Source: Notolepis coatsorum (lineage: Eukaryota; Chordata; Actinopteri; Aulopiformes; Paralepididae). Taken from it: a DNA stretch of 64,000 nucleotides. Both the position numbers and the translations under genes were made by a program. The first letter of the stretch is position 1. The number at the start of each line of letters is the position of its first letter. Below, one piece after another: positions 36,816 to 64,000 of this stretch. The DNA is taken from NCBI GenBank assembly GCA_963971535.1, contig OZ020589.1, positions 82,980,860 through 83,044,859 of the forward strand. Direction: 5' to 3'. The notes beneath the pieces are model-generated. The model was not told where the DNA came from and did no database searches. It worked only from the letters and a program-made list of their open reading frames with translations.

Positions 36816-37225
36816 GAACAATGATTATGATATGAAGATACCTCCCATTAATATCAATATTCATACAGGACCAATAAGAACAACGCTTCAAATCCAAACA
36901 AAGGAAAACACACACTACAATTTGCATGGACATTGGTTGCAAGATAAGATGCATTACAATGTATTTGTAAAATGTTATAGATATTTTTGGGGATTGGGTT
37001 TGGGGATTGATGTGTGGGGTGTCAAGTCAGTCAAGTCAAGTCAAGAGTTTTATTTGTCACGGCATACAGTGAAATGCGGGGGGTCATGCCCGCAGCGATT
37101 GTGCAATAATACAAGTAATAAGAATAGGAATGAGAATAGGACATTTGTGCAATAATACAAGTAATAAGAATAAGACATGACAGGTATAATGTACATACAA
37201 TTTACAAAAAGTATGGTAAGACATG

Positions 37226-38617
37226 TGAAGTCACAAAGGGGCTATATTCTGTTCTGATGAATCAGAACTGGCCTGCTCTGCGTTGTGTATTATCCCTTAA
37301 AAGCCCTATGTACTTTCAAAAACCAGCTAAGTGGTTTAAAGCGATGACAAAGAGACGGCGGTTGGAAAAAGGAGTCAGAGAGGAAGTTATTGTACGGATC
37401 CGGTTTTAATGGAATCCCAACGTTAATAACAAAAGATGTGAATGAAAAACAATGCAATGAAACCCAAACATGCCCGATACTGTGCCATCGACCGTGAGTT
37501 TCAGACTAAAATTCACTTAAATTAAAAGAATCTCTCTCGGCTCCTCCTCGTTGGTTCGCTGGTGCTCGTCTCAACGCGTCGTCGTCCTTCTCGTCCAGTA
37601 GGGGAAAAGCAAGCTTCTGGTCGTGTTGTTTACTGTTGTGTTTTTTTCTCTGTCTCTGAACCGCTCACTTTAAAGACTAACTCCTCCCCCAGCATTACGT
37701 CAGGAAGGGCGGACCTTTCTATGAGAGAGAGAGCTTCCAATTGGAGGACCAGTGTGGCGGTCGTTTTTAGCCCACCCACACTTTTGATTGGGTGAACCTA
37801 GGTAGCAGCCTTTTTAGCTTATCTACCAGGATATGTCCTTATTAAGGCATAGGTTGGCTCTTAATAGCCTGACGGAAATGCCCTTATAAAGGCATAGGTT
37901 GGCTCTTAATAGCCTGACTGTGTATTGCTGTTTAGAAGATTCTTCAGTGTTTGTTCATAGTTAAACTATATATTTCTGAAGTTAGTTTGCCCGCTTGGCA
38001 GAAATGTGTCTAAACAAGTGTTTCTCTATTGATTGTTTAAGATTAACAAGACTATACGTGAGGGTAAATGTGTGTCATTCTCTGAGTCATATCACTAAGT
38101 ATTTATCTGTTTTTGCTTGCTTATCTAGCATAAGAGTCCTATAGTCCAAATGTTTGTGAAGCCACCTGGCCACCGTCTGTTTGAGGTGTTGGTCTCCCCC
38201 ACCATAGAGAGAGGGGGGTAGGTGGGTATTTCCACTCCGCCTGGCGGGTGTTTCTTCCTGTTCCTGATTGTTCTATTGAGACTGGTTCACTATAGCCGGC
38301 TATAAATCAACATCATATCTATTCAGAATCTATCTTTAACTTGCCAACAGGATCTTGGGACCTTTGATATGCTAAGTTACTCTGTCCCCCGGCCTAGGCT
38401 GTGTTTACTATTGCAGAGAGACTGCCTGAGTATCGTCCTTTTACAACTCTGTGTTAATCCAACCTGTGTCCCCTCCACCCCTCCTCTCCAGGCGGGGGTT
38501 GGAGACACCGCTTGAATCAGAATGTGTGATGCACTGTTACCATGTTCAACAACGACTCTGTAGCGGACGGCAGCCCTGTACATAGGTTATACATTTTGCT
38601 TGGGAAATTCCACCACA
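37226..38617 (-). repeat. 3' LTR of the provirus
   Basis: About 1.39 kb; TGAAGTCACAAAGG...AATTCCACCACA on the plus strand. It holds a two-copy tandem of GGCATAGGTTGGCTCTTAAT (37847, 37891). Confidence 0.95.
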
Positions 38618-39178
38618 GTTCCCCGGTTTGGGGATTCTATATCCCCAATATTCTTGTTAGTATTTTCTCAATCAAACTGTTCGTACATTGTACAAATACC
38701 TTAACCTTTTAACTGTTTAGCCAAATCACATAAAAACCAAAAATTTAAAGAATCCTCTAACGCACAGTTCATTTTTGTTAGTGCCAATGCTTTCAACACC
38801 CTCGTTAGTTCACTCACACAATTAACAATTATCGGTTAGTTGAAGTTAACACAATTCTAAGTTCACTCACACGATTAACAATTATCAGTTAGTTGAAGTT
38901 GACACAATTTATCAGTTTTATCAGTTATTTAAAGTTGACATCCGTCTAGGTCCGTTTCTGTATACAAAAAGAACATCGGACCAGTTATCAGCTTTTTGCT
39001 ATACTTATGTATAGTTAACCAAACATGTCTGTTTTGTGCGGCTAACTCTGAAAGAAAAGATTATTGCATCGCATTAAAATTAAACATCTCTAAGAAAGGA
39101 GAGAGCTCAAAATCAAAAAATCTAAAATATATACACGCTCTCTCCATGGACTATCATTTAGCTTTTCCTCACTTTTTC
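38618..39178 (-). other. Spacer between integrase and 3' LTR
   Basis: About 560 bp, AT-rich, with a two-copy ~60-bp repeat (GTTCACTCACACRATTAACA, 38809 and 38862). A purine-rich AAACCGGGGAAC abuts the LTR in polypurine-tract position. No protein recognised. Confidence 0.75.
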
Positions 39179-40050
39179 CTATGTGTACCTTAGAGGTTTC
39201 TTAATAACTCGTTGCGGTCGAGAATCTCTTTCCGGGCTTGTGCTAAGCACGGTTCCCTCCGGTATGATTTGAGGTGTACTCGGCCTATTCACCTCCTCCC
39301 CGGTTTCATGCTCCTGTCTACTGGAGACATGATCCAGAATATTTTTGTGGATCTTTGACATGTATTTCACGTACTCGCGCATATCATTGTCCAGGATGTC
39401 CAAACTTGGACCTTTGCCTGTCGCGCGCAAGCCTGGCACTACCATGCAACGACCTAACATCATTTTGTGCGGTGTCAAACGCAGACCGCGAATTTCACTC
39501 GAACGACACGCCATCAATGCTAATGGGAGAGCGTTTAGCCAATTCAAACCTGTGTGTTGACAGATCTTAACCAATTTGTTTTTTAGTGTCCCGTTCATGC
39601 GTTCCACCAACCCCTGGCTCTGCGGATGATAAACGGCCCCCAATCGCTGTTTTACGCCTAAATGTTGGAGTAGTAAACGTACAGTTTTGTCGACAAATTC
39701 TTTTCCATTGTCCGAGCTGATTCTGTCCATTATTCCAAAACGGGGACACACCTCTTGGCATAAGAACTTGGCCACCGATGCTGCATCCTTGTGCCGGGTG
39801 GCACACGCCTCCACCCAGCTTGAAAAACGACAGACAACGACAAGAATATATCTCTTCTGATTAATTGGTTTAATCATGTCAATGTAATCAATTACAAGGT
39901 CTCGCATTGGGCCATTGGGCGTGGGGATATGCCCTGGTGACACACTAATCCCCTTACGTATATTATTTTTCAAACATCTCTTCATACAGTACATCTCTGT
40001 ATCACATGATCAATTTGACTGGTTAAATCTGGCGCCCAAAAGCCATATTC
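39179..40050 (-). pseudogene. Integrase region of the provirus
   Basis: The catalytic core is PMRDLVIDYIDMIKPI (first Asp), RISSDNGKEFVDKTV (second Asp) and YHPQSQGLVERMNGTLK (Glu). A C-terminal region with LRLTPHKMMLGRCMVVPGL follows, then a polar tail. It ends about 560 bp before the 3'LTR with no env between. Confidence 0.9.
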
Positions 40051-41178
40051 TTAGATTTTTCTCCTCACCTCTCCCCGATGAGCATGACAGAAGTCATGAG
40101 CCGTGTGGATCAGCAGTCCGACCAGGCCAGCAGGAGCCACCACAAATCCACTGTGGCTGCGCCATAAACCTAAAACATCCTGACTAGCCCCCCTGGTTAC
40201 CCAGAGGTTTCTTTCTACCTGACTAGCCTCCTCCTGGAAAGTCAAAACATCCTTGTAAGTTATCTTGTCCTCTAACTCAACTTTGTGTGTGATAACCAAG
40301 ACCTTACCTGCCCTGTCAGCACCTGTCACTTCCTTGGCAGCTTCATCTGCTCTATTGTTTCCTCGAGTTATTTTGGACTCGTCTGACTGATGAGCAGCAC
40401 ACTTGATTATTGCAATCTGCTTTGGTTTCATAATTGCTTCTAACAAATTCTTAATCTGGCTACAATGTTTTATGGCGCTTCCATCGGCTTTCTTGAATCC
40501 TCTCCCTTTCCATACCGTGCCAAATAAAAATGCGATTCCTTGTGCATATGCCGAGTTGGTATAAATATTCACAGTTTTGCCCTCTGCCATTTTACATGCT
40601 TCAGTCAGTGCAACTAATTCTGCTAGCTGAGCTGAGCAGGGTTGTGCTAAAGCTTCGGCCTTTTCTACCACAAACCCTTCGCCCTGTGACCTTATCACGG
40701 AGTAGCCTGCTTTTTGTCCCTCACCAACTCGATAACAAGAGCCGTCAGTCCATAGTTCCAGATCTGGACTGCTAAATGGAAAAGCCTGCAAGTCTGCTCT
40801 GAGTTTAGAGTACCTCTCGGCTTCGGCCACACAGTCGTGAGGTTCTCCATCCTCAGGCGTAGGGATGTCCGCTGCCGGGTTCGTTATGGAACACCTGACC
40901 AGAGTCACATCTTCCTGTTCCAAAAGCCTGTAATAATGTCTAATGCGAGGCATCGTTAGTGCATATTTACCGGACTCCAACAGACTCTTTAAGTCATGCC
41001 TCACCATGATATCCACTGGATATCCCATCATGATACTTGCGGCTTTCTCGTACATTGTATAGACTCCAGCCATTTCCCGGTAGCAGGGAGCCATCCCCAT
41101 CTCGACTTCCGAGTAGGCAATGGAGTAGTACGCCATCGGCTGTGGTCGTGCCCCCACCCCGGTGTCCTGGGTCAACAC
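40051..41178 (-). pseudogene. RNase H region and integrase zinc-finger start of the provirus
   Basis: Thumb/connection (MAPCYREMAGVYTMYEKAAS) is followed by RNase H with LELWTDGSCYRVGEG (first Asp), ALAQPCSAQLAELVALTEA (Glu), VNIYTNSAYAQG and NNRADEAAKEVTGAD (last Asp). HTAHDFCHAHRG at the end is the histidine half of the integrase HHCC finger. Confidence 0.88.
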
Positions 41179-41193
41179 CGCGCATGCCTGCTT

Positions 41194-42399
41194 CTAATCT
41201 GGAGAGGAAGAGACGTATAATATGAATTTCTTGGTATAGTTAGGCAAAGCCAGGGCTGGCGCTTCTAACAGTCGGGACTTGATTGTTTCAAACGCCCGTA
41301 AACCATCCTCAGTCCAAACCACTTTACTACTCAGCTTATCAACCGCCTCTTTCATCATGTCTCTTAATGGTTTCACTATTTCAGTATAGTTTTCGACCCA
41401 TGGAGAACTGTACCCTGTGATACCCAAAAATCCCATCATTTGTCTTACCGTCACAGGTTTGGGAGCCGTCTTAATGGCTACCAAATGTTCTTCCGAAATA
41501 GCCCGATGGCCCTGTGAAATTGTTTGTCCTAAATAGATCACTTTAGGTTTACAATACTGCAATTTCTTCAAAGACACTTTGTGGCCTTTTTCTGCCAATA
41601 GCTGCAACAGTTTTACGGAGTCGCGATGACATGTTGTCTGATCGTCTGCACACAGTATAAGATCATCCATGTACTGAATGACCCTAGAGGTCAATATTGT
41701 ATCCAACCCGTCTAAGTCCTCCCTTAGGATTTTGTTAAATATGTGTGGCGAATGCTTTAGTCCCCGAGGGATTCTAGTATACTCATAATGCTCATTTTTA
41801 TAGGTAAAACCAAAAAAATGCTGGCACTCCTTGCTCAAGGGTACACTAAAATATGCACTACACAAATCTATAACCGTAAAATATTCAGCTTGCAATGGGA
41901 TAAATGTCAATAGCGTATGGGGGTCGGGGACATCCGCGGGATAGTCAAGTAAAACCTTGTTGACAGCCCTCAAATCGTGTACCAACCGGTACGAGGTATC
42001 AGGTTTCTCCACGGGTAGCAACGGCGTGTTGCTCCGGGGATTAGTTGTTTTCTGTAGGACTCCCGCTGTCAAAAGTCCTTTGATTTGTGGCTCTATTCCA
42101 GCCACCGCTTTCTCCTTCAGTGGGTACTGATTTTTCCAAGGCAGGGTGGCCCCCGGTCTAAGCTCCACTCTCACAGGTTGAGCGGACTTGATTAATCCAA
42201 TGTCAGTGCTGTTTTTTGACCACAGCTTCTCTGGCACCGCCTTCATCATGTCCTCCTGGAGGCTCAATGCGTTAGGGAATTCTCCCATTGTCTCTTGGGA
42301 TAATTGCACAGTTTGGGGGCGACCCATCCCTGTGCCTTGGACCATGATCTTAATAAACCTTTTGTCGGGGCTTATCCAGATCAGTTTGTTTTCTTTCAT
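41194..42399 (-). pseudogene. Reverse transcriptase region of the provirus
   Basis: Retroviral RT: PWKNQYPLKEKAVAGIEPQI, LLPVEKPDTSYRLVHDLRAV (block 2), YFTVIDLCSAYFSVPL (first Asp), PRGLKHSPHIFNKIL, catalytic YMDD (about 41665-41676; VIQYMDDLILCADD), LKKLQYCKPKVIYLGQTIS. YMDD and the LPLD-type spacing fit gamma/epsilon-type retroviruses better than Ty3/gypsy. Fossil element. Confidence 0.9.
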
Positions 42400-42417
42400 C
42401 TGTTCAAATTGAATTCC

Positions 42418-43153
42418 TTACGCTTTTTTCATCATCTCGCCAATGTGCTGCTGATCGCACGAGTTGGCTACCTTTAAAGTCACATGGGGAACACTGTCCG
42501 CAATCTCGTGTTCTTTATGCAGATATTCGCTCCGTGCAATACGTAGCGCTGCTCCTTGCGGCCCCAATATGATATTGGTAGCATTAAGCTGTACTTTGTC
42601 TGGTTGCACGCTCAGCCACTCCTTAGTCTGTGACGAGTCTGCATCTTTATGGTATTGCAGAGTGCAATGGTATGGTGTCTTTGGATCACTTGCTTCAGGC
42701 ATGTTGGCGGTGATAAATGTCTCCCATTCCAAGGCTGAACCAAGCAACTCTTGGTCCAGTCCCCCTAGACAATAGATTTCCGGTGGTCGGCTATCGATTC
42801 TTTGTACCATCTGATAGTAATGGTCTTCTCGTACATTTATGACACACCCATCCGCTGTACATTTAATGTCCATTCCCAGTAACCCCAGCCCATCTCGGCC
42901 AAGTAAGTTAATGGGTGAACTTTCCGAAACCAGCACGGGAAGAGTCGCTTCCCTGCCTCGATATCTCAGGGTCACAGGGTCGGTCACAGGCGTCAGCTGT
43001 TTTACTCCCTCAAATCCAATTGTCCGTACGTATCGACCGGACAGGGTTAGGTGCGTCGCGTCTTGGGGTTGCACTACCGTATAGGCCCCGGTGTCTGCCA
43101 TCATCGCGACAGATTTGTCATTCACCGATACGCACACAATAGGCTCCTCCCTT
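42418..43153 (-). pseudogene. Aspartic protease region of the provirus
   Basis: Retropepsin motifs: VAMMADTGAYTVV (active-site DTGA), ALRI-type strands, and INLLGRDGLGLLGMDI (the conserved GRD-L block). It lies between gag and RT, as in retroviruses. A SINE inserted just upstream separates it from gag. Confidence 0.85.
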
Positions 43154-43170
43154 AAAGACGACATTGACAG

Positions 43171-43654
43171 AGGGCGGCTAGGTGGTGTAGTGGTCTAAGG
43201 CACTCGCCACCAGTGTGGAGACGCTAGGATTCGCGTGTTCGAATCCAGCTCTCCACATTGTTTTTCAGTTTGGCTGGTCGTCCGCAGTAATACACATTGG
43301 CCGTATTACGGGGAGGGAAAAACTGAAGGGTGGGGATCGAACGTGGTGAACAAGCGACTCCTACAAGTCGGTTGGTGCGCCTGCGCAGTAGAATCAGGAA
43401 GTGTCGGGGGCAGCGTGAGCCTCCCACGCGTTACTCCTCGACACTGAGAGATCGAGCTGCGCAGGTGAAAAGATGCGACTGCTGTTACCTCAAGTACCGG
43501 AGGGGACTTGTGCTATGTATGACTTAGTCCTCACTGCAGCCGGCTTGTGGGAGGCAAGAAACAGCGTTCGTGACAGGGGAGGGTTGAATTGGATGATACG
43601 AAATTGGGATGGGAGAAAATATAGAAAATGGGAGAAAAAGTGGATCAAAAAAAA
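43171..43654 (+). mobile_element. tRNA-derived SINE inserted in the provirus, 17-bp target duplication
   Basis: AAAGACGACATTGACAG flanks it at 43154-43170 and 43655-43671. The head is tRNA-like with an A box (about 43181-43193, GGTGGTGTAGTGG) and a B box (GTTCGAATCC, about 43237-43246), so RNA polymerase III would read it on the plus strand, opposite to the provirus. It ends in an A-rich tail (from 43647). At 484 bp it is long for a simple tRNA SINE. It post-dates the provirus. Confidence 0.93.
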
Positions 43655-43704
43655 AAAGACGACATTGACAGCTGACACCTCCCCATTGGACTCTCTGGGC
43701 CTCT

Positions 43705-46306
43705 TCAGAGTGATTCGTCTGGCCCTCTTGATGGATTCACCGGGCCATAGTTCTCACTCGGGTGCTGGCCTTGGTTTGGGCCTTGGTTTTCATTCTGGGT
43801 CTGGCTTTGGTTTGAGCCTTGGTTCCGCCAATTTCCACCTTTTCTCCTGTTGTTCCATCGAGGTCCCCCTCTTGTGGGCTGAGGACGGTACTCTCCTCCT
43901 CGGGGTTGATATCCTTGGTCACAGTCCCTAGACATATGCCCGAAATTTCCGCACGGCCAACACTCCACTGACCCTGGCTGAGGTCTGGATCCATTCGATC
44001 CTCCTCTTTGACGTTCATTCCCTCCTCGGAACTGCCCGTTCGCTCCCCTCTGGCTCTGTTGTTGTTCTGGCGCAGGACCCCCCTGTGTCCCCAACTGACC
44101 CCGTCTCTGGTCATTTGGTTTCCCGTTGGAGCCCATCTCCCCTCTTGGTTGTGGGGACTGGACTAAGGCTTGGAGGTATTCCACTATCTTCCCTGCATCG
44201 GTTGGCTGTTGATACAGGATCCTTCGGTGTTGTTCCGCATCCTTATCCTTTTTGTTTTGCTCCCTCTTCCGATATAGGTCAACTTGATGGGCCACATTAT
44301 CAGTATAATAGTTTAGGGGGAGGCTTGACAGAGACACCACCTCAGCCAGTTTTTGCCTCACCTCCATGGGGAGGCCGTTTTCAATCTTTCCTCTTAGCAC
44401 GGCTTCCCACAGGGGGTCCTGTTCTACATCCTGGCCAGTTGTATCCCTCCAGGCGGCGTAGGCTTTTTGTACATACTGCCTAGGGTGGGTGTCCCCCAGG
44501 GTACCAATGTGGATTTGGTCTGGGTGCATCTTGGTCGGGTAGGTTTCTCAGAGGGCCAGCCACAGTACTCCCCTGTGCCTGTACGAACAGGTCCGCATCC
44601 TGCGCTCCAGTCCCCACATGGTTTCCCATGCCAGCCTTCTCCAGTACTTTTTCCATGCCCGCTTTTCCCATCACGGTTGACAATAGTCTTTTTACATCCC
44701 CCATCGCCATCTCTTGGCGGATCATTAGTTCCTCCAATTTGGCAATCCACGGATTGGCCCCATTCTGGAGGGGCGGCAATTTCTCAGATACTTGAGTCAT
44801 GTCGGACGCCTTCCAGGGGTGATATTCCAAGTCCTGTCCTCTTATTATCACGGGAGCTATTTTGACGGGGGCCTGGTTGTGGGGTTGAAGACTTTTCGTC
44901 TTTGATCTGGTCACCATTCCACTCCTCACGTCCTCTTCCATCTTCTCAAGGGCCTTTTTCTGCTCTTCTTTTTTGGCTTCCAGGACCTGTCGTTTTCTCT
45001 CAACCTTTTCCCATATCGCGCTGATCGTTTTATACTCCTGCGTATCTTTGCTCTCTTTGTTGTCTTTGTCATTTACCCGCACTGCTATTGCGACATGGTC
45101 ATTGCTCAATTCCAAGAGCTGCTGGTCTATGTCTACCAGAGCGTCCCTTATCCTTACCATCTCCTGGACAAGTTCAATACCCTGTGAGGAAGACATTTTT
45201 AAATCAGATTCCTTACCTCTTAGTGCTGTTTCGGATTTTCCCTCTCGACTTCCCGTTTCTGTTGATATATCCATTCTCGTGGATGTTTCGTGTTTCTTCA
45301 TCAGCGCCCACTCGGCTAGCGTGCTGCCAACCGGGGAACTGTTTCTTATTTCATACCGGCTGGAATCACTTGAGGGGGGGCGACCTCTTTGATACTCGCT
45401 CTGGCAGTCAGACGAGTCTGGGGTGGGGCCGTGTCTTTCCATTAGCTTTTCCCACTTTTTCCGTGATACCATCTCCTCATATTTGCTTTGTCCTTCCACT
45501 TCAGCCGTACGGATCTTCCTGGCTACTTCCGACATATATCCAGTCTTTTCCCCTTGATGCTGTGAGGGCACATATTCCCTCTCTGAACAAGTCAAGGGTT
45601 GAATGTCTTGTGGCTCAGGTGTCAGGTGAATTTCTGTTCTTGCTTGTCCCGACTCTCTATTCCCCCGATCGTCTGTTAAATGATAAGGGCTGCTCATTTG
45701 TATTACAGGCAGAATAGGGTACACTCGTTCCCCATTCCTACTGTCATATGGTGGGGGTGCTAAAGCTCCCTCGACTCTTACCTGTTCTACTCTTGGGTGG
45801 GACACTGGGGTGAGTGAGGCTACCTGAGCTGCACTTTGGACGATGACAGTTGTTGTGTTAGGGGCCAGGGGAGTTATGGTGACCGGGACTACCTCCTCTG
45901 CTGGTTTGGCCGCTTCATTGACAGTTGCACTGCCCTTCTGGTCACTATTTCTCCTCTCTGCCTCCCGTGCGTAGGATTCTATCATCGTAGTTTCTTGCAG
46001 AAGTTTCTTTGCCCTTGCCTTTTCACTCCCGTGGTGTTTGTATGTCTTAATTAGCACTCTTATGTCAGCTATTAGCTCCAAATCAAAAGAACCTTCGATG
46101 GGCCAAGGGTTTGTAAGATGTTCCCATATTTTGTTCCATTTTTTCGATATTCTATCGACTTTTTCCAAATAATATGTGTTATCTTTTGTGTGGGGGTGAC
46201 TGTTGGTGATAACCTGTACTGGACTTTCTTCTATCCAACCAATTAGGGTCGACCTATCTGAGTGGGTTGCGACTTCCATTTTCCTATATGAGATCTTATT
46301 TCCCAT
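43705..46306 (-). pseudogene. Gag region of the provirus
   Basis: It starts MGNKISYRKMEVATHS; the MGNK start suggests N-myristoylation of a matrix domain (WIEESPVQVITNSHPHTKDN, WNKIWEHLTNPWPIEGSFD). A Pro-rich stretch and a long charged helix (KVERKRQVLEAKKEEQKKAL) follow, then a capsid C-terminal part (YVQKAYAAWRDTTGQDVEQD, LPMEVRQKLAEVVSLSSL) and a nucleocapsid with one CCHC knuckle (CWPCGNFGHMSRDC) and Gly/Arg/Asn/Gln-rich tail. A single knuckle recalls gamma/epsilon-type gags. Fossil. Confidence 0.88.
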
Positions 46307-47262
46307 TTACTAGAGCTCCCCTTTCCTTTTGATTTTGTAACAATGGCAACAGGCAAAAAAGTGTTTTCTGTATTCCCTGTCTAAATGTAGGTGTCTATGC
46401 TTTTTGTGACTGACTCCTACTCGGACAGCCAATAGTGGCACTGTAGGCCCTACCTATTCTCTTCTGTCCCTTTTTCACCTGAAATTCCTATTCTTACCCG
46501 ATTTGTGGTGTTCCGTGGGCCCAATGGAACTGCTGGAGATCAGAGCACACAAAAGACAACAGTTCTTGTTAATTTATCAACTGGACTTGTACTTTACTCT
46601 GTCTTTATAATCAAATTTTTTGAGAGGTTCTTTTCATTAACTGCATGAGTTTCTTTTTACTTCCTTCATACAATTTTTAAAAACGAGATATTTGTAATTG
46701 ATACATGTGTTTGATGTCGCCAGTTTCTACTCCCTGATTTTCTTCCCGTTCGATCTCCGTCAACACACTGGGTTCCTATTTTTGTCGAATCTCGGCTCTC
46801 CACTATTCCTCCTTGATTCTACTCCAATTCTGATATCCCTCGGGAAACAAAAACATCTTGATTAGTCTTTCATTACATACATTCTTTCATATTTTTTCCA
46901 TTATTCAGTACCATTCCCCCCAGGGGACACTCGTCATCCAGACTCGTGTCCACGAGAGATAATCTAAAGAATGCATCGGACACCGCGCCCTGCACGCCGT
47001 GAGGTGTCAGCCCCTGTTTTCTGAAGAGTCCATAACAGACCCTCCACATAGGTCAGAACACACCCCACCACAGGTACAAAGCAGTCAGCATCCAAGCATC
47101 TTATCCCACCATCCAAGCTATCATCCCCAGAATCCAGTGCCCTGCCGGACAGCCATGCATAACCGACCGGACCCAACACCGAACCCTGGGTACACAGCTC
47201 CATATAATACAGTCATCACTCACGTACCTACTATGGGAAAAATAAAATTGCATACACATCCA
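45253..47262 (-). repeat. Internal 2.0-kb tandem duplication of the provirus, copy 1
   Basis: A 2010-bp unit repeated at 47271-49280 (offset 2018), separated by eight extra bases. It spans the end of env, the env-gag spacer and about the first 350 codons of gag. I saw only about ten differences between copies. Confidence 0.93.
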
Positions 47263-47270
47263 TACAACCA

Positions 47271-49280
47271 ACGTTTCTGTTGATATATCCATTCTCGTGG
47301 ATGTTTCGTGTTTCTTCATCAGCGCCCACTCGGCTAGCGTGCTGCCAACCGGGGAACTGTTTCTTATTTCATACCGGCTGGAATCACTTGAGGGGGGGCG
47401 ACCTCTTTGATACTTGCTCTGGCAGTCAGACGAGTCTGGGGTGGGGCCGTGTTTTTCCATTAGCTTTTCCCACTTTTTCCGTGATACCATCTCCTCATAT
47501 TTGCTTTGTCCTTCCACTTCAGCCGTACGGATCTTCCTGGCTACTTCCGACATATATCCAGTCTTTTCCCCTTGATGCTGTGAGGGCACATATTCCCTCT
47601 CTGAACAAGTCAAGGGTTGAATGTCTTGTGGCTCAGGTGTCAGGTGAATTTCTGTTCTTGCTTGTCCCGACTCTCTATTCCCCCGATCGTCTGTTAAATG
47701 ATAAGGGCTGCTCATTTGTATTACAGGCAGAATAGGGTACACTCGTTCCCCATTCCTACTGTCATATGGTGGGGGTGCTAAAGCTCCCTCGACTCTTACC
47801 TGTTCTACTCTTGGGTGGGACACTGGGGTGAGTGAGGCTACCTGAGCTGCACTTTGGACGATGACAGTTGTTGTGTTAGGGGCCAGGGGAGTTATGGTGA
47901 CCGGGACTACCTCCTCTGCTGGTTTGGCCGCTTCATTGACAGTTGCACTGCCCTTCTGGTCACTATTTCTCCTCTCGGCCTCCTGTGCGTAGGATTCTAT
48001 CATCGTAGTTTCTTGCAGAAGTTTCTTTGCCCTTGCCTTTTCACTCCCGTGGTGTTTGTATGTCTTAATTAGCACTCTTATGTCAGCTATTAGCTCCAAA
48101 TCAAAAGAACCTTCGATGGGCCAAGGGTTTGTAAGATGTTCCCATATTTTGTTCCATTTTTTCGATATTCTATTGACTTTTTCCAAATAATATGTGTTAT
48201 CTTTTGTGTGGGGGTGACTGTTGGCGATAACCTGTACTGGACTTTCTTCTATCCAACCAATTAGGGTCGACCTATCTGAGTGGGTTGCGACTTCCATTTT
48301 CCTATATGAGATCTTATTTCCCATTTACTAGAGCTCCCCTTTCCTTTTGATTTTGTAACAATGGCAACAGGCAAAAAAGTGTTTTCTGTATTCCCTGTCT
48401 AAATGTAGGTGTCTATGCTTTTTGTGACTGACTCCTACTCGGACAGCCAATAGTGGCACTGTAGGCCCTACCTATTCTCTTCTGTCCCTTTTTCACCTGA
48501 AATTCCTATTCTTACCTGATTTGTGGTGTTCCGCGGGCCCAATGGAACTGCTGGAGATCAGAGCACACAAAAGACAACAGTTCTTGTTAATTTATCAACT
48601 GGACTTGTACTTTACTCTGTCTTTATAATCACATTTTTTGAGAGGTTCTTTTCATTAACTGCATGAGTTTCTTTTTACTTCCTTCATACAATTTTTAAAA
48701 ACGAGATATTTGTAATTGATACATGTGTTTGATGTCGCCAGTTTCTACTCCCTGATTTTCTTCCCGTTCGATCTCCGTCAACACACTGGGTTCCTATTTT
48801 TGTCGAATCTCGGCTCTCCACTATTCCTCCTTGATTCTACTCCAATTCTGATATCCCTCGGGAAACAAAAACATCTTGATTAGTCTTTCATTACATACAT
48901 TCTTTCATATTTTTTCCATTATTCAGTACCATTCCCCCCAGGGGACACTCGTCATCCAGACTCGTGTCCACGAGAGATAATCTAAAGAATGCATCGGACA
49001 CCGCGCCCTGCACGCCGTGAGGTGTCAGCCCCTGTTTTCTGAAGAGTCCATAACAGACCCTCCACATAGGTCAGAACACACCCCACCACAGGTACAAAGC
49101 AGTCAGCATCCAAGCATCTTATCCCACCATCCAAGCTATCATCCCCAGAATCCAGTGCCCTGCCGGACGGCCATGCATAACCGATCGGACCCAACACCGA
49201 ACCCTGGGTACACAGCTCCATATAATACAGTCATCACTCACGTACCTACTATGGGAAAAATAAAATTGCATACACATCCA
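47271..49280 (-). repeat. Internal 2.0-kb tandem duplication of the provirus, copy 2
   Basis: Carries an extra gag start (MGNKISYRKM at 48324) that runs to about 47280 and then meets the duplicated env-end sequence. Near-identity with copy 1 suggests a recent event or an assembly artefact. Confidence 0.93.
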
Positions 49281-50580
49281 CTCGGCATCAACGGGACGCC
49301 CACATCCGCCCGGCCCCCCTCCGCGTCATCCCTTACTATCATCATCGCAAACGCAGGTGCCGCCGAGCAGTGTGACCTCTCAATCGCAGGACCAGCCGCG
49401 CAGAGAGTCCTGAATATATACATAATACACACCTTGATCACAGCCACACAGACAACTATAACTGCAAACATCACCACGGCATAAAACAGATACTTAACAA
49501 CAGACCACCCCACATAGCCCAGTTGTACATGACCCCAGTCATCCCATGAGTCCTCCCGAGAGTCATGCATATCCCTAGTAATGTTCTTCAAATGCTCAAT
49601 TACGGCTGGCAAACCCATTTCATCATTGGCTGGTATGAATGTGCAGCACTCCTGACCAATCAACGCACACGTGCCCCCCGACGCCGCCAATAGGAAGTCC
49701 ATAGCTGCTCTCGTCTGCAACTCCATCAGTCGTAAGGACCGTAACTCCTGAGCCTCCAGGCTCAAGCCCCTCGCTGTCGTGGCAGCCATGTCCTCAAACA
49801 ATTTAGCCAAATGATCCAGTTCTCCCATGTTTGCATATGCCCCATACCAGGGAAAAAATGGTCCGCATCCCGTGTCTTCTTTGTCTTGGGAAACGCCGGC
49901 AAAACATCAGACACCCTCATAGCCGGTACTAAGTAACCCAACGCACATCTTCCCCTCCAGTCAATTGGCAACGAGGCATACGCAAATTCACCACAAATCC
50001 AAAACGCCCCAGGCGGAGCTGGCGCCTCTGAATCCCTGCCCCAGACCCCATTATCCCCCAGGCAGCCGTCCAAGTACCCCACGACTTTACCATTCGATTT
50101 ACCCTCCACACACTTCTCAAACCCTGCCGACCTATATGCTATTGGAATGGGGCCAGTGTCTAACAGCCCACCTATCTTCATTTTATTCTTCATTAACCCC
50201 TGCCCCAGATATCTCTCAATCCTTTCCGATCCCACCCCGTTACACAGGTCAGGGGTAGGCAAATCCTTTAACACGTTGGCATGACACTTCGTTATAGGGT
50301 GTGCAATCAGAGGAAGGCCCGCGGCGGCCGCCTGTGGGGACAGGCCGCACACATAGCAATCTGATTTATTAGCTACCTTCGCCACCGCCCTTGCCATCCC
50401 CAGAAACAGATTACCGTGACGGTCTGGCAGCAACCGTTTACCCACTACCACCACCTCTGGCAGCTCAGGCTGTCGGAGTGGAACATATAGCATCATGCTA
50501 GCCAACATACACAACCAAACCATTGATATAGCACACCCCAAAAGCACCCGCCTTCTACTTTCACTCAAACCAGGAACCAT
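49238..50580 (-). pseudogene. Retroviral-type envelope region (surface and transmembrane parts)
   Basis: The 5' part begins MVPGLSESRRRVLLGC with a hydrophobic signal-like segment (ISMVWLCMLASMMLYV) and ends with FWICGEFAYASLPIDW and RGRCALGYLVPAMRV, a block typical of surface subunits near the SU/TM junction. The 3' part has a heptad-rich helix, MELQTRAAMDFLLAASGG, then CALIGQECC, the CX6CC motif of gamma-type transmembrane subunits, and a membrane span (YLFYAVVMFAVIVVCVAVI). The surface part is short for the family. It lies 5' of gag, which is not the order of any retrovirus genus I know. Fossil; not intact. Confidence 0.88.
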
Positions 50581-50749
50581 GTTGAGTGTTCCGTCCTCCT
50601 CCGCGTTCCTCCTTCACCGGCGCGTGTCCTAATATGTCCTGCAACCCCCACAAACAACAACATGTCTTTATAACAACACGCCCCACAGCCAACAGCCTAC
50701 TGAAGTGAGGACCCCAATTTAAAACAGAGAGGCAGGACGCACCGGAACC

Positions 50750-51660
50750 CCTGAAGGGTAGGAGAGAGGGCGTACCAGAACTAAAGGGAGGCCAAGAGAG
50801 GAAAGGGCTAGGGGGGGTAGGTGTAGGGGAGACTAGGGAGGGAAGAGGGAGGTCAGGGCAGGAGAGAGGGGCAGGTTTAGGGAAGGCAGGGCAGGACCAG
50901 GGACTAGGGTAGGCCAGGGCAGGTCTAAGGGATTGGGGTCGACTAGGGTAGGTTAGGGGAAGCTAGGGAAGGTTTAAGGGATTAGGAGAGAGGGGCAGGT
51001 TAGGGGAGGCAGGGTAGAGAGTAGGTCAGGGGAAGCAGGGGAAGCTATGGAAGGCTTAAGGGATTAGGAGAGAGGGGCAGGTTAGGGGAGGCAGGGAAGG
51101 AGGGGGGAGAAAGAGAGGGAAAGTAAGGGAGAGAGAGAGGGAAAGAGGGAGGGAGAGAGAGAGAGAGGGGGGGGGGGGAAGAGGGAGGGGGGGGGGGCAG
51201 GTGGTGAGTGAGTGAAGGAGGGAGGGAGAGAGAGAGTGGAGAAAGGGAGGTAGCGAGAGAGAGGAGGGAGGGAGAGAGAGAGAGAGAGGGGGGGTGAGTG
51301 AAGGAGTGAGGGAGAGAGAGAGGGGGGTAGGGAGAGAGAGGGGGGGGGGTGAGTGAATGAGGGAGGGACAGAGAGAGAGTGGGGGGGTGAGTGAAGGAGG
51401 GAGGGAGAGAGAGAGAGGGGGGTAGGGAGAGAGAGGGAGAGAGAGAGAGAGGGGGGGGGTGAGGAAGGGAAGAGAGGGAGGGAGAGAGAGAGAGAGGGGG
51501 GGTGAGTGAAGGAGGGAGGGAGATAGAGAGGGGTAGGGAGAGAGAGAGAGAGAGAGAGAGAGAGGAGGGGGTGAGTGAAGGAGGGAGGGAGAGAGAGAGA
51601 GAGGGGGGGTGAGGAAGGGAGGAAAAGTAAGAGAGGGAGGGAGAGCGAGAGAGAGAGAGG
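50750..51660 (-). repeat. 900-nt homopurine/homopyrimidine tract upstream of env
   Basis: GGGAGGGAGAGAGAGAGGGG-type purine repeats on the plus strand, so pyrimidine-rich (CTCTCCCTCC) in the sense of the provirus. Units of about 45-60 bases containing GGTGAGTGAAGGAGGGAGG recur. The Ser-Leu-Pro frame across it is repeat read-through. Confidence 0.9.
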
Positions 51661-52309
51661 GGTCCTAAAAGAGGGACATATATCGACACGTCCGTGGCTT
51701 CCAAAACGTCACCACTGCCCATTAATCTAACCATACCGCCAACGTAATAAGCCACAAACGACATAAACGAACTGCACCAGCTAAACACCTCCTGTATCTA
51801 CCCCAGGATGGCAGTCCAAATGATGCCTCCACCGCCCCCTAGCGCAGTTCCAACCACATCGCTTTGAAAAAATGAACCCCTTACAATGGCTACCCCTTGC
51901 CCCATCTAAAATGGCGACCACGGCGCTCCACCTAAGACGGCCGCGCACCGCGAGACATCCCGAGAATCCCCTCAAGCCACGTAGGCAGCAGGACGGGAGC
52001 CCTAGGCATGAATCTGGTGCCACCCAGTGTACTTTTAACCACATACCACCCATTCTGCTCGCTCGCTTCACACACCACACATATCGTCCTTTCAAGCCAG
52101 TGCGCATGCGCAAATCTCTCATACGGCCTACCAATTCAATTTAACCATTATTATCTTTCGTACTGCGGCCCACACCACGCATTCAGCATTAATACTAACA
52201 TTAGCCAATACTGCAATTCACACGACGCATTCAACATCAATGATAATTCAGTTACACTGTAATACCATCCCATTCACAACATACAGTATTGAATAACCCT
52301 AGCAACATA

Positions 52310-52575
52310 TTAGCACGCAGCCAGCCAGTCGCTAGCCACGGCTAGCGGGCCATATAGCATGTAGCTAGTTAGCCGCTTAGCTACGACGAGCGGCCTACTA
52401 CACACCTAATAGCCTACGAGCTACGACGAGCGGAACATATTAGCACACAGCTAGATAGCCGCTTAGCTACGACTAGCGGGCCATATAGCATGTAGCTAGT
52501 TAGCCGCTTAGCTACGACTAGCGGCCTACTACACACCTAATAGCCTACGAGCTACGACGAGCGGTCTATAATGTC
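52310..52575. repeat. GCTAGC/TTAGC-rich tandem repeat in the leader
   Basis: AGCATGTAGCTAGTTAGCCG...CTACGACTAGCGG recurs about every 125 bp (52354, 52486), and GAGCTACGACGAGCGG recurs too. Confidence 0.85.
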
Positions 52576-53966
52576 GAAGCAACTTTAATCTCAATATAAG
52601 CGCTAGTGTACAGATTTAATCCCTTATTTTATTAATCAATGTACAATATAACAATAAGTCCTTATGTTATGTCAGTCATTCCTAACCTCTAACAGTCATT
52701 CAAACATACACATTATTGATAAAATTCAAACATCCATTCAGATTTTGATCTCATGCTATTGTTATCAGAGCGCCCGCGCGGCCATCTTTAAAGATTCACA
52801 TTCTATGTTACAATTTTCAATAGCTTCCGCGCGTCCATTTTCAATTTGCTCAAGCGCATTATTATACTATAACCGCAAAGGACGTTTACCTTGCAAAGAG
52901 CATATTGAAACGAATATTTTTACTAATCGCTTTTTTTAATCGCCGTCGCAGGCCGAGACAGTGGAATTGGGCATCCAGGCGAGCATGCCCTCTCAGGATA
53001 TGTACCGAATATTTAACCTGTTTTGAACTCGCTTTCTCAGGGCCAGCCAGGCAATTCGATCCCCCTAACCAAGCTCTAACACGGCCAGATTATGGTAGGA
53101 TAGCTGCTACGTTTAGTAAAAAATCCCCGCCTGTAGAAACACCGGGTATCGGCTAGACCGAACGAACCTCTAAGCTAATTGCATGCTCACCCAAAACTCA
53201 GCCGCCGTCCGCCTATCCCCACCATCTGGGAACCCCGCGACTCGCAACGAACTATACCATATTAGCACCCTCTAACATAACCACCCTTTCCCGCGGCCTG
53301 CAACGGTGTTGAACTGAAACCTGGAAACTCCATTCGCATTCTTGCCGACGTCCTGTACCCCTGCTTTCTGTCGCTTGAGAGGCGCCAGTAAACAAAGGCA
53401 CGGCGTTAGCCCTGCAATCGCAAATATCAAGGCCCACTCACCGTATACAGAACACGAAAAACACAACTCATCACTACACACCCTGGAAGACGACCCACGA
53501 TTGACTGAGCTAGCCGGGGCCAGTCATATCCAGAGCTGCACACTAATGTACCTACCCATCACATAGATAATTTAGCAGTGATCAAACGCTATTTATCCAG
53601 TGCGGCACGTCCCCTTCTATTGAAGCGGAATACCTTGAACCCCCCGCTTCAAATCGATGCTCCCAATATGATAAACGAATGTTACGAATCCCCATTATAA
53701 TCATTGCGCCCACCAAGAACCCTGCGACTGCCACGGAGCCCCGGCGGGCGTCCTCAGCAAGACTATTGAGTCATACATCTCTAATGCAACCCCCGTTCGA
53801 CCTGAACGCCTCGTACTTTCATTCATCACGGCCCCGTGTTCACTCACCTGTTCTCTTTGTAGATTCGCAGGAGACTGTCGTGATGAGTTTCCCAGGCACC
53901 GATTAGCCGAGAGTCAGAAGAAAAAAAATTCCTGGCGCATCAGGACAAGGGTCAAGACACCACTTT

Positions 53967-55355
53967 GAAGTCACAAAGGAGCTATATTCTGTTCTGATTA
54001 ATCAGAACTGGCCTGCTCTGCGTTGTGTATTATCCCTTAAAAGCCCTATGTACTTTCAAAAACCAGCTAAGTGGTTTAAAGCGACGACAAAGAGACAGCG
54101 GTTGGAAAAAGGAGTCAGAGAGGAAGTTATTGTAAGGATCCGGTTTTAATGGAATCCCAACGTTAATAACAAAAGATTTGAATGAAAAACAATGCAATGA
54201 AACCCAATCATGCCCGATACTGTGCCATCGACCATGAGTTTCAGACTAAAATTCACTTAAATTAAAAGAATCTCTCTCGCCTCCTCCTTGTTGGTTCGCT
54301 GGTGCTCGTCTCAACGCGTCGTCGTCCTTCTCGTCCAGTAGGGGAAAAGCAAGCTTCTGGTCGTGTTGTTTACTGTTGTGTTTTTCTCTGTCTCTGAACC
54401 GCTCACTTTAAAGACTAACTCCTCCCCCAGCATTACATCAGGAAGGGCGGACCTTTCTATGAGAGAGAGAGCTTCCAATTGGAGGACCAGTGTGGCGGTC
54501 GTTTTTAGCCCACCCACACTTTTGATTGGGTGAACCTAGGTAGCAGCCTTTTTAGCTTATCTACCAGGATATGTCCTTATTAAGGCATAGGTTGGCTCTT
54601 AATAGCCTGACGGAAATGCCCTTATAAAGGCATAGGTTGGCTCTTAATAGCCTGACTGTGTATTGCTGTTTAGAAGATTCTTCAGTGTTTGTTCATAGTT
54701 AAACTATATATTTCTGAAGTTAGTTTGCCCGCTTGGCAGAAATGTGTCTAAACAAATGTTTCTCTATTGATTGTTCAAGATTAACAAGACTATACGTGAG
54801 GGTAAATGTGTGTCATTCTCTGAGTCATATCACTAAGTATTTATCCGTTTTTGCTTGCTTATCTAGCATAAGAGTCCTATAGTCCAAATGTTTGTGAAGC
54901 CACCTGGCCACCGTCTGTTTGAGGTGTTGGTCTCCCCCACCATAGAGAGAGGGGGGTAGGTGGGTATTTCCACTCCGCCTGGCGGGTGTTTCTTCCTGTT
55001 CCTGATTGTTCTATTGAGACTGGTTCACTATAGCCGGCTATAAATCAACATCATATCTATTCAGAATCTATCTTTAACTTGCCAACAGGATCTTGGGACC
55101 TTTGATATGCTAAGTTACTCTGTCCCCCGGCCTAGGCTGTGTTTACTATTGCAGAGAGACTGCCTGAGTATCGTCCTTTTACAACTCTGTGTTAATCCAA
55201 CCTGTGTCCCCTCCACCCCTCCTCTTCAGGCGGGGGTTGGAGACGCCGCTTGAATCAGAATGTGTGATGCACTGTTACCATGTTCAACAACGACTCTGTA
55301 GCGGACGGCAGCCCTGTACATAGGTTATACATTTTGCTTGGGAAATTCCACCACA
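53967..55355 (-). repeat. 5' LTR of the provirus
   Basis: Same sequence as 37226-38617 with around fifteen differences and one short length difference by eye. It shares the internal 44-bp tandem (54588, 54632). Confidence 0.95.
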
Positions 55356-55581
55356 CATGCTAAGGTCCTGCGATAGTGCAATACAATGTTAGCTACAGAT
55401 GAGACACTGGGTCTTATGTACACTACTATACAATGCTATACTATACAATCTACATTTATACTATGTGTCCTTATGCTAACTTGCTATATCCATCTATTTA
55501 CTATACAAGAACCACTCCCGTTCTTGCTAAAGCGACTGTTAGTGTGTGAGCGTATACAGTGTGTGTGTGTTATATGTGTGC

Positions 55582-60429: not shown

Positions 60430-62268
60430 CTGATAGACACAAAAATAAAAAAGGGAGGAAGAGAGGTGGGTGAGATGATGTACGATGATAAGAGCACCCG
60501 GCCCTCACTTCACACGAGTGCGATTTTTTTTAATCACTCAATTACTCACTCTGTAGGTCTACAGTAACAAGCTACAGTCAGCATCCAGTTAGACTGGACA
60601 GGAAAGAGAATTAAGCAATCGCCTAGCCTGACACCATCTAGGCAATACAATGTGTATCCATGCACTTCTAGATCTATCACAGTGTTTAGAGGGTCTATCA
60701 CACCCTCTAAACACTGCTAGACCCTCTAAACACTGTGACAGACCCTCTAAACACTGATAGACCCTCTAAAGACTGTGATAGACCCGACAAACACTGTGAT
60801 AGACCCGACAAACACTGCTAGACCCTCTAAACACTGTGATAGACCCTCTAAACACTGCTAGACCCTCTAAACACTGTGACAGACCCTCTAAACACTGATA
60901 GACCCTCTAAAGACTGTGATAGACCCGACAAACACTGTGATAGACCCTCTAAACACTGTGATAGACCCTCTAAACACTGTGATAGACCCTCTAAACACTG
61001 TGATAGACCCTCAAAACACTATGATAGACCCGACAAACACTGTGATAGATCTATCACAGTGTTTAGAGGGCCCTCTAAACACTGTGATAGACCCGACAAA
61101 CACTGTGATAGACCCGACAAACACTGTGATCTGTCAGTGTTTAGAGGGTCTGTCCCAGTGTTTAGAGGGTCTATCAGTGTTTAGAGGGTGTGATAGACCC
61201 TCTAAACACTGTAATAGACCCTACAAACACTGTGATAGACCCTCTAAACACTGATAGACCCTCTAAACACTGTGATAGACCCTCTAAACACTGATAGATC
61301 TATCAGTGTTTACAGTGTTTGTCGGGTCTATCACAGTGTTTAGAGGGTCTGTCAGTGTTTAGAGGGTCTATCAGTGTTTAGAGGGTCTATCACAGTCTTT
61401 AGAGGGTCTATCAGTGTTTAGAGGGTCTATCACAGTGTTTAGAGGGTCTGTCACAGTGTTTAGACGGTCTGATACAGTGTTTAGAGGGTCTGCCACAGTG
61501 TTTAGAGGGTCTATCAGTGTTTAGAGGGTGTGATAGACCCTCTAAACACTGTGATAGACCCTCTAAACACTGTGATAGACCCTCTAAACACTGTGATAGA
61601 CCCTCTAAACACTGTGACAGACCCTCTAAACACTGATAGACCCTCTAAACACTGTGATAGACCCGACAAACACTGTGATAGACCCTCTAAACACTGTGAT
61701 AGACCCGACAAACACTGTGATAGATCTATCACAGTGTTTAGAGGGTCTATCACAGTGTTTGTCGGGTCTATCACAGTGTTTGTCGGGTCTATCACAGTGT
61801 TTAGAGGGTCTGTCAGTGTTTAGAGGGTCTGTCCCAGTGTTTAGAGGGTCTATCAGTGTTTAGAGGGTGTGATAGACCCTCTAAACACTGTAATAGACCC
61901 TACAAACACTGTGATAGACCCTCTAAACACTGATAGACCCTCTAAACACTGTGATAGACCCTCTAAACACTGATAGATCTATCAGTGTTTACAGTGTTTG
62001 TCGGGTCTATCACAGTGTTTAGAGGGTCTGTCAGTGTTTAGATGGTCTATCAGTGTTTAGAGGGTCTATCACAGTCTTTAGAGGGTCTATCAGTGTTTAG
62101 AGGGTCTATCACAGTGTTTAGAGGGTCTGTCACAGTGTTTAGACGGTCTGATACAGTGTTTAGAGGGTCTGTCACAGTGTTTAGAGGGTCTATCAGTGTT
62201 TAGAGGGTGTGATAGACCCTCTAAACACTGTGATAGACCCGACAAACACTGTGATAGACCCTCTAAAC

Positions 62269-63198: not shown

Positions 63199-64000
63199 CT
63201 CTAAACACTGTGATAGACCCTCTAAACACTGTGATAGACCCGACAAACACTGTGATAGACCCGACAAACACTGTGATAGATCTATCACAGTGTTTAGAGG
63301 GTCTATCACAGTGTTTGTCGGGTCTATCACAGTGTTTGTCGGGTCTATCACAGTGTTTAGAGGGTCTGTCAGTGTTTAGAGGGTCTGTCCCAGTGTTTAG
63401 AGGGTCTATCAGTGTTTAGAGGGTGTGATAGACCCTCTTAACACTGTAATAGACCCTACAAACACTGTGATAGACCCTCTAAACACTGATAGACCCTCTA
63501 AACACTGTGATAGACCCTCTAAACACTGATAGATCTATCAGTGTTTACAGTGTTTGTCGGGTCTATCACAGTGTTTAGAGGGTCTGTCAGTGTTTAGAGG
63601 GTCTATCAGTGTTTAGAGGGTCTATCACAGTCTTTAGAGGGTCTATCAGTGTTTAGAGGGTCTATCACAGTGTTTAGAGGGTCTGTCACAGTGTTTAGAC
63701 GGTCTGATACAGTGTTTAGAGGGTCTGTCACAGTGTTTAGAGGGTCTATCATAGTGTTTAGAGGGTCTATCAGTGTTTAGAGGGTCTGTCACAGTGTTTA
63801 GAGGGTCTGTCCCAGTGTTTAGAGGGTCTGTCCCAGTGTTTAGAGGGTCTATCAGTGTTTAGAGGGTGTGATAGACCCTCTAAACACTGTAATAGACCCT
63901 ACAAACACTGTGATAGACCCTCTAAACACTGTGATAGACCGTCTAAACACTGTGATAGATCTATCACAGTGTTTACAGTGTTTGTCGGGTCTATCACAGT

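What the first reader, a model, noticed from the sequence alone, without database searches (positions are those of the whole stretch)
37226..55355. Provirus with env 5' of gag and no env at the usual place
Both LTRs, a matching CATG target duplication and all coding regions lie on one strand, yet the order is LTR-env-gag-pro-pol-LTR. The env assignment rests on a CX6CC motif with membrane span and an SU-type block; gag rests on MGNK start and CCHC. There is only about 560 bp between integrase and the 3'LTR, and no LTR-like sequence between env and gag, so a simple tandem of two proviruses does not explain it. If the order is fixed in a family it would be a new retroviral genome plan, with env nearest the promoter and gag-pol probably needing a splice or internal initiation. 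The alternative is recombination in this single copy.
Basis: partly seen in the sequence, partly recalled or inferred. Interest (0 to 1): 0.88.

Follow-up and report, generated by a model that had tools for sequence, protein, structure and literature searches.

The report
Retrovirus family with envelope gene first
A fish-type genome carries a large family of retroviral insertions in which the envelope gene sits before the core and enzyme genes instead of after them, and copies that have diverged from each other keep this order and an intact-looking envelope gene.

Summary
Minus strand of 37226-55355: 5'LTR, 3.4-kb leader, env, spacer, gag, pro, RT, RNase H, integrase, 0.56 kb, 3'LTR; LTRs 98.7% identical, CATG target duplication. 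It is not a single-copy accident. The host genome (3.42 Gb, unnamed) has 150 scored env places, a capped list. Of 47 other env loci read, 46 have the same spacer and 42 have gag downstream of env on the same strand; none shows a plain pol-env-LTR order in the stretch read. Of 140 scored integrase places, 38 (window included) have a listed env within 20 kb: env is 5', same strand, in 38 of 38. Env is gamma-type (Syncytin-2 E 2e-12; one of three copies above Pfam's TLV_coat cut-off) and evolved under constraint (24 uninterrupted frames, dN/dS median 0.27). Best reading: a class I ERV lineage with a stable env-gag-pro-pol plan, env and gag probably read from separately spliced mRNAs. Splicing is inferred; no RNA was seen. 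Two relatives of its pol have an env motif after RT. The window copy is dead. Open: whether other species carry the plan.

The parts
53966..55355 (-). 5' LTR; outside it CATG (55356-55359)
   Evidence: 98.7% identical to the 3' LTR, TG...CA ends
53945..53962 (-). primer-binding-site position, 3 nt after the LTR; 3 of 3 other copies read there have TGGTGCCGTCGACCC (recalled: near the tRNA-His type)
   Evidence: tRNA assignment recalled, not computed
53847..53848 (-). splice donor SD1 candidate CAG|GTGAGT
   Evidence: best-scoring donor of the element (8.5; best antisense site 5.4, weights recalled); same CAG|GTGAGT in 2 of 3 other copies, deleted in the third
50581..53965 (-). leader, 3.4 kb, 60 ATGs, with a minisatellite 52306-52568
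50780..51660 (-). C+T-rich tract upstream of env; its richness varies between copies and some lack it
50639..50640 (-). splice acceptor SA1 candidate (TTGCAG|G), 58 nt before the env ATG
   Evidence: T[GA]CAG there in 38 of 40 other copies; acceptor scores alone are not above the antisense control, and this site is not among the 30 best
49762..50580 (-). env, SU part (CYVC; GAFWICG..LPIDWRGRC stretch)
   Evidence: Syncytin-2 E 1.8e-4
49238..49906 (-). env, TM part, in another frame in this copy (CALIGQECC, hydrophobic stretch); about 140 nt present in most other copies read are missing near its end
   Evidence: PDB 9x3j 'Envelope glycoprotein' E 8e-8, Syncytin-1 E 2.6e-7
48325..49237 (-). env-gag spacer; composition changes sharply at 48923 (interval 48914-48938)
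   Evidence: homologous spacer in 46 of 47 other env loci
48551..48552 (-). splice acceptor SA2 candidate (CTCCAG|C), 226 nt before the gag ATG
   Evidence: AG in 41 of 42 copies, window included; exact CTCCAG in 33 of 41 others
48514..48515 (-). splice donor SD2 candidate (CAG|GTAAGA) between SA2 and gag
   Evidence: GT in 42 of 42 copies, window included; CAGGTAAG in 39 of 41 others
47101..48324 (-). truncated gag copy made by the tandem duplication
   Evidence: gag homology down to 47272
47272..49280 (-). tandem duplication, first unit
   Evidence: 99.45% to 45254-47262
45254..47262 (-). tandem duplication, second unit
44480..46306 (-). gag (MGNK start), interrupted here
   Evidence: 72 scored places in the genome, window's two included; open frames up to 882 aa
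43705..44547 (-). gag continuation with CCHC knuckle
   Evidence: zf-CCHC 21.6 bits, cut-off 20.8
43154..43671 (+). tRNA-type SINE-like insert with 17-nt target duplication (43655-43671, 43154-43170)
   Evidence: ARAGORN found no tRNA; box reading by eye
42418..43194 (-). protease frame (its first residues lie in the insert)
   Evidence: RVP 21.3 bits, cut-off 20.7
41194..42417 (-). reverse transcriptase
   Evidence: RVT_1 5e-26; 4hkq RT E 1e-59
40051..41193 (-). RNase H
   Evidence: RNase_H 2.5e-22
39179..40009 (-). integrase
   Evidence: rve 3.5e-17
38618..39178 (-). 3' tail, no env; 75-79% similar tail in 4 of 5 other 3' pieces read
37226..38617 (-). 3' LTR; outside it CATG (37222-37225)

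Best explanation
A multi-copy class I (gamma/epsilon-like) endogenous retrovirus lineage whose genome plan is LTR-leader-env-spacer-gag-pro-pol-tail-LTR. Shown: the order, its fixation over diverged copies of one genome, the gamma-type nature of env, constraint on env. Inferred: the 5' LTR makes one full-length RNA; its 3.4-kb, ATG-rich leader is unsuited to scanning, so env is read from an mRNA spliced SD1 (53848) to SA1 (50639), and gag-pol from an mRNA in which leader and env are spliced out (SD1 to SA2, 48551), leaving a 226-nt stretch with no ATG in the window copy. Unspliced RNA would then serve mainly as the packaged genome. Env moved to, or was acquired at, this place before the subfamilies split; relatives with an env motif after RT suggest that the usual order is ancestral.
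For: Order: 42 of 47 env loci with gag downstream, 46 of 47 with the spacer; env 5' of IN 38/38, env 5' of gag 54/55, IN 3' of gag 27/27, env 3' of the leader 6/6. Two of five IN copies without a listed env, when read, also show env-spacer-gag. No env match between IN and the 3' end in L051, L052, L054, L055. Co-diversification: distances of SU and TM correlate with those of gag, r 0.88 and 0.90, permutation maxima 0.21 and 0.23. Constraint: 24 of 49 loci have a 440-475-aa env frame; 272 of 272 pairs with dS above 0.02 (of 276) have dN/dS < 0.5, median 0.27. Env identity. Splicing: SD1 the best donor, SD2 GT 42/42, SA2 AG 41/42, 9 ATGs in 8,999 nt after SA2 (40 copies) against 802 in 30,758 nt of spacer before it (45 copies).
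Against: No RNA data. Acceptor scores do not beat the antisense control and SA1 is not among the 30 best. The ATG-poor stretch before gag runs to about 325 nt, some 100 nt beyond SA2, a second ATG-poor zone follows at 400-525 nt, and shared ATG positions are inherited, not independent. SD1 was read in only three other copies and is deleted in one. 34 of 40 leader places have no listed env within 20 kb, 17 of 72 gag places none, 102 of 140 IN places none, so many copies lack env or fall below the list cut; of five such IN copies read, three showed no env at the expected place. gag N-terminal dN/dS is 0.63 (13 copies). L040 has pol fused in front of env. Only one genome was searched.
Confidence: 0.8

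Rival explanations
1. Recombination in this single copy only.
For: The window copy is rearranged: tandem duplication, frame interruptions, insert.
Against: Same env-spacer-gag junction in 42 of 47 other loci; env places on 26 contigs at 72-98% identity; env 5' of IN 38/38.
Confidence: 0.01
2. The order is real and fixed, but gag-pol is expressed without splicing: internal ribosome entry, reinitiation after env, or an internal promoter in the spacer; env alone is read from the LTR transcript.
For: Acceptor motifs are not stronger than chance; the ATG-poor zone overshoots SA2; composition changes sharply inside the spacer at 48923.
Against: 24 ATGs between env stop and gag in the window copy argue against reinitiation; SD2 and the AG of SA2 are kept in 42/42 and 41/42 copies, SD1 in 2 of 3.
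Confidence: 0.25
3. A chimeric, trans-mobilised family: a canonical or env-less ERV picked up an env block in its leader once and spread as passenger copies, env having no role in its spread.
For: Leader and env differ in base composition from gag-pol (A 0.22, G 0.32 against A 0.30-0.35; break at 48923); many copies have no listed env.
Against: Env dN/dS 0.27 over dS up to 1.05; env and gag diverged together.
Confidence: 0.12
4. Assembly or segmental-duplication artefact.
For: The window's tandem duplication could be a false duplication; some listed copies lie in local clusters (e.g. C30:127.68-127.73 Mb).
Against: Env places on 26 contigs, env distances up to dS 1.05.
Confidence: 0.02

Closest known systems
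Gamma/epsilon-like (class I) fish endogenous retroviruses
   Same: LTRs, CCHC gag, PR-RT-RNase H-IN, gamma-type Env with CXXC and CX6CC; RT relatives named from many teleosts, best identities 65-67%
   Different: Env precedes gag; in P0020 (Hemibagrus wyckioides) and P0052 (unnamed) an SU motif follows RT, and P0050 shares P0052's stretch after RT
Epsilonretrovirus (walleye dermal sarcoma virus)
   Same: Recalled: fish host, an extra frame (orf C) between the LTR and gag, tRNA-His primer; the family's PBS looks similar
   Different: Recalled: its env lies after pol; no reference sequence was compared here
Lokiretroviruses (PMC9040795, abstract and passages seen)
   Same: Endogenous retroviral lineage found in fishes among others
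   Different: Their Env resembles Mononegavirales fusion proteins; here it is gamma-type
MDG1-group LTR retrotransposons with a FAST-like small protein upstream of gag (PMC11952523, passages seen)
   Same: A putative entry/fusion factor is encoded between the LTR and gag
   Different: Insect elements with an unrelated small protein; here a full retroviral env
Spumaretroviruses
   Same: Recalled: pol is read from a spliced mRNA
   Different: Recalled: gag is still read from unspliced RNA and env lies after pol

Membership tests
Retroviridae / ERV | paired LTRs with TG...CA and target duplication | tested here: met
   (window copy)
Retroviridae / ERV | gag with CCHC, PR, RT, RNase H, IN in that order | tested here: met
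Retroviridae / ERV | retroviral env | tested here: met
Retroviridae / ERV | gene order gag-pro-pol-env | tested here: not met
Class I (gamma/epsilon-like) ERV | RT nearest to gammaretroviral RT among solved structures | tested here: met
   4hkq E 1e-59 (recalled: a gammaretroviral RT), MMLV RT 1mml 2e-40, Ty3 1.6e-27, HIV-2 4e-19
Epsilonretrovirus | RT clusters with WDSV/WEHV | not tested
   no reference sequences held or typed
Epsilonretrovirus | tRNA-His primer site (recalled) | tested here: inconclusive
   TGGTGCCGTCGACCC in three copies; not matched by computation; the window copy differs
Lokiretrovirus | Mononegavirales-like Env | tested here: not met
   gamma-type Env
MDG1 group | Ty3-type pol with FAST-like protein | tested here: not met
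   RT nearer MLV-type than Ty3; env TLV_coat

The most novel reading that the evidence does not exclude
Founding example of a retroviral clade with an env-first genome, in which both env and gag-pol are made from different spliced mRNAs, so that the full-length RNA is a genome that is hardly translated, and packaging and translation are separated at the RNA level.
Probability: 0.5. Interest if true: 0.95.

Novelty: new variant of a known kind. Interest (0 to 1): 0.87.

Why it matters
Gag-pro-pol-env order is treated as a constant of retroviruses, and surveys can build it in: a screen of 2004 vertebrate species kept elements with gag-pro-pol-env structure (PMC10435555, passages seen), so an env-first lineage would be missed there. 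A diverse family with this plan shows the order is not obligatory, and makes it testable how Gag is translated and how genomic RNA is told from mRNA when env stands in front.

Tried and rejected
Tandem-provirus or circular-permutation origin within this copy: no LTR or 3'-tail sequence in the spacer, no env remnant in the tail. Env block as a young insertion with its own target duplication: no direct repeat beyond chance at the block ends; the 5' composition break is not well placed (a wide test is significant, interval 53812-54294; a narrower one is not). The idea that the block was recently captured was dropped when env proved constrained and co-diverged with gag. Protein searches for TM (456 candidates) and gag (996 scored) found nothing at E <= 1e-3; RT gave 61 hits. 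IMG/VR scans with RT, gag and TM found no relative. Rfam at gathering scores: none. Paper searches aimed at an env-first retrovirus (background) listed no such report; I saw only 30 of 134 and 5 of 3,904 papers, and the library is open-access only. Papers: passages seen of PMC8672886 (with abstract), PMC9040795 (with abstract), PMC10996621, PMC10435555, PMC7599744, PMC4977317, PMC12642411, PMC12992720, PMC11952523, PMC3621094, PMC12440569; none read whole. The passages of PMC8672886 (zebrafish ERVs) name no env-first element. Corrections of my own notes and scripts: a note says spacer 47 of 47, the count is 46 (L028 lacks it); one search paired 71 gag places with only 45 of the 140 IN places (26 of 26), and one search used shortened env and gag lists; one search repeats both with the full lists. 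Rows dropped: two short gag pieces (74 rows, 72 used); four env pairs with dS 0.02 or less and one such gag pair. In one search two env places have their nearest listed gag 5' of them, in both cases on the opposite strand.
Full report
WHAT IS THERE. The minus strand of 37226-55355 is one provirus: LTRs 98.7% identical over 1392 columns, TG...CA ends, CATG on both outer sides. Along it lie a 3.4-kb leader, an SU-like frame (50613-49762), a TM-like frame (49906-49238), a 913-nt spacer, a truncated gag (48324-47101), spacer and gag again (46306-44480), a CCHC frame, protease, RT, RNase H and integrase, then 561 nt and the 3' LTR. The doubled gag start is a 2009-bp tandem duplication (45254-47262 = 47272-49280, 99.45%). 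Because both units hold the env-spacer-gag junction, env stood before gag before the duplication. A SINE-like insert with a 17-nt target duplication separates gag from protease.

IS IT ENV. The SU part matches Syncytin-2 (E 1.8e-4); the TM part matches a chain named Envelope glycoprotein (9x3j, virus not stated, E 8e-8), Syncytin-1 (E 2.6e-7) and, more weakly, filovirus GP2. An uninterrupted 448-aa frame from another copy matches Syncytin-2 at E 2e-12. Of three other copies scanned, one passes Pfam's TLV_coat cut-off (35.3 bits against 22.5) and two stay below it (19.9 and 18.6). CXXC (CYVC) and CX6CC (CALIGQECC) are present.

IS THE ORDER FIXED. The window lies in an unnamed 3.42-Gb genome. 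The TM query gave 150 scored places of 2444 candidates, 72-100% identical, on 26 contigs. I read 47 other env loci (seven best with 1.5-kb flanks; forty chosen down the list with 1.8 kb before and 2.9 kb after TM). The spacer follows env in 46 of 47 (L028 lacks it), and gag follows on the same strand in 42 of 47. The five without gag are L020, L021 and L047 (spacer, then nothing recognised), L026 (env-spacer-tail) and L031 (env-spacer-IN-LTR). No locus showed integrase, then env, then LTR; L040 has a PR-RT piece fused in front of env, followed by the usual spacer and gag. Coordinates of 140 scored integrase places (of 22,536 candidates) against the 150 env places: 38 pairs within 20 kb, env 5' on the same strand in 38 of 38, 23 of them 7.3-8.8 kb apart (the window is one). 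Of 72 gag places (the window's two included), 54 have env 5', one has env 3' (that env is followed by its own gag), none on the other strand, 17 have no listed env. IN lies 3' of gag in 27 of 27 pairs, and env 3' of the leader in 6 of 6. In all, 73 of 150 env places have a listed gag or IN 3' of them on the same strand.

COPIES WITHOUT A LISTED ENV. 102 of 140 IN places had none within 20 kb. Five were looked at: L058 and L060 carry env (TM 65-70% identical), spacer and gag at the expected place, below the list cut; L059 showed nothing recognisable in its 3 kb; C8:79097226 has part of the spacer and gag but a hAT-like frame and minisatellite where env would be, and no match to its own 3' LTR stretch in about 11 kb upstream, part of which reads N; C23:17031800 has no env in the upstream piece read, which belongs to another ERV. 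So the plan reaches deeper subfamilies, and env-less or damaged copies exist too. 34 of 40 leader places lack a listed env.

AGE AND CONSTRAINT. 24 of 49 loci hold an uninterrupted env frame of 440-475 aa; 272 of their 276 pairs have dS above 0.02, with median dN/dS 0.27, all below 0.5, dS up to 1.05. For 13 gag N-terminal frames the median is 0.63 (77 pairs). Pairwise distances of TM and SU correlate with those of gag (r 0.90 and 0.88; permutation maxima 0.23 and 0.21), so env and gag have diverged together. Open gag frames reach 882 aa; open frames with integrase reach 1560 aa, and about 39 of 140 (hand count) are 1400 aa or longer, which points to recent activity of the lineage. The window copy itself is interrupted in env, gag and pol.

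ORIGIN. RT relatives are mostly fish elements (61 hits, with two frog and one plant entry among the named); the nearest solved RTs are of the MLV type. In P0020 (Hemibagrus wyckioides, 43% RT identity) and P0052 (59%) an SU motif follows RT in one predicted protein; P0050 (50%) shares P0052's stretch after RT. These env parts hit the window's SU weakly at the right place (P0052 E 0.019, P0020 E 0.23). A neighbouring foreign ERV in the same genome (L055/L056) shows integrase followed by an env-like frame with CYVC (my reading; SU match only E 0.026). So the usual order is probably ancestral, and env was moved or acquired anew. Leader plus env are A-poor and G-rich compared with gag-pol; the break at 48923 is sharp (gain 64 against at most 22 in 60 block shuffles) and is seen again in the second unit. 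This fits a different history of the two halves but does not prove capture.

HOW IT PROBABLY WORKS (inferred). The leader holds 60 ATGs before env, and 24 more lie between env and gag. SD1 (GAACAG|GTGAGT) is the best donor of the element, above every antisense site, and is kept in two of three other copies. 58 nt before the env ATG lies TTGCAG|G; T[GA]CAG is there in 38 of 40 other copies. A C+T-rich tract lies upstream in the window and many, not all, copies. 226 nt before gag lies CTCCAG|C, AG in 41 of 42 (exact CTCCAG in 33 of 41 others), followed by SD2 CAG|GTAAG, GT in 42 of 42. From SA2 to gag there are 9 ATGs in 8,999 nt over 40 copies, against 802 in 30,758 nt over 45 copies just upstream. 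Against this: acceptor scores are within the antisense range, SA1 is not among the best-scoring sites, and the ATG-poor zone does not end at SA2. I therefore hold separate spliced mRNAs for env and gag-pol as likely, not shown. The role of SD2 is unknown; it may be the old major donor or feed a further transcript.

COMPARISON. Every retroviral part is present, so it is of the retroviral kind by its parts but fails the gene-order criterion. A small FAST-like protein before gag is reported in insect MDG1-group elements (PMC11952523, passages), an unrelated protein in unrelated elements. Extra frames before gag are reported in bat betaretroviral ERVs (PMC3621094, passages). No report of an env-first vertebrate retrovirus was seen in the searches named in Tried and rejected.

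LIMITS. One genome, its species not named to me (fish inferred from RT relatives); list searches score only the best candidates; no RNA; independence of insertions is inferred from places and divergence, with target duplications read only for the window copy.

Noticed in passing
window 43154-43671: Antisense SINE-like insert with tRNA-type promoter boxes (by eye), T-run and 17-nt target duplication between gag and protease.
   Followed up: partly
window 23538-25862, minus strand: A second, distant retroelement: RT (24% identical) and integrase (30%) matches.
   Followed up: no
window 60702-64000: Large array of a 21-bp unit (ACCCTCTAAACACTGTGATAG) that also occurs in the reverse orientation.
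   Followed up: no
L055 and L056 (G000:C23:17028700-17043200): A copy of the family lies next to or inside another ERV with its own gag, pol and a downstream env-like frame, i.e. the usual order in the same genome.
   Followed up: partly
L053 (G000:C8:79086700-79091900): A copy with gag and part of the spacer but with a hAT-like frame and a minisatellite where env would be.
   Followed up: partly
L040 (G000:C27:105444966-105450244): PR-RT piece joined to SU, then env-spacer-gag; two env places 6.3 kb apart on this contig.
   Followed up: no
window 48514-48515 and 41 other copies: A donor-like CAG|GT between SA2 and gag is kept in 42 of 42 copies aligned; its use is unknown.
   Followed up: partly
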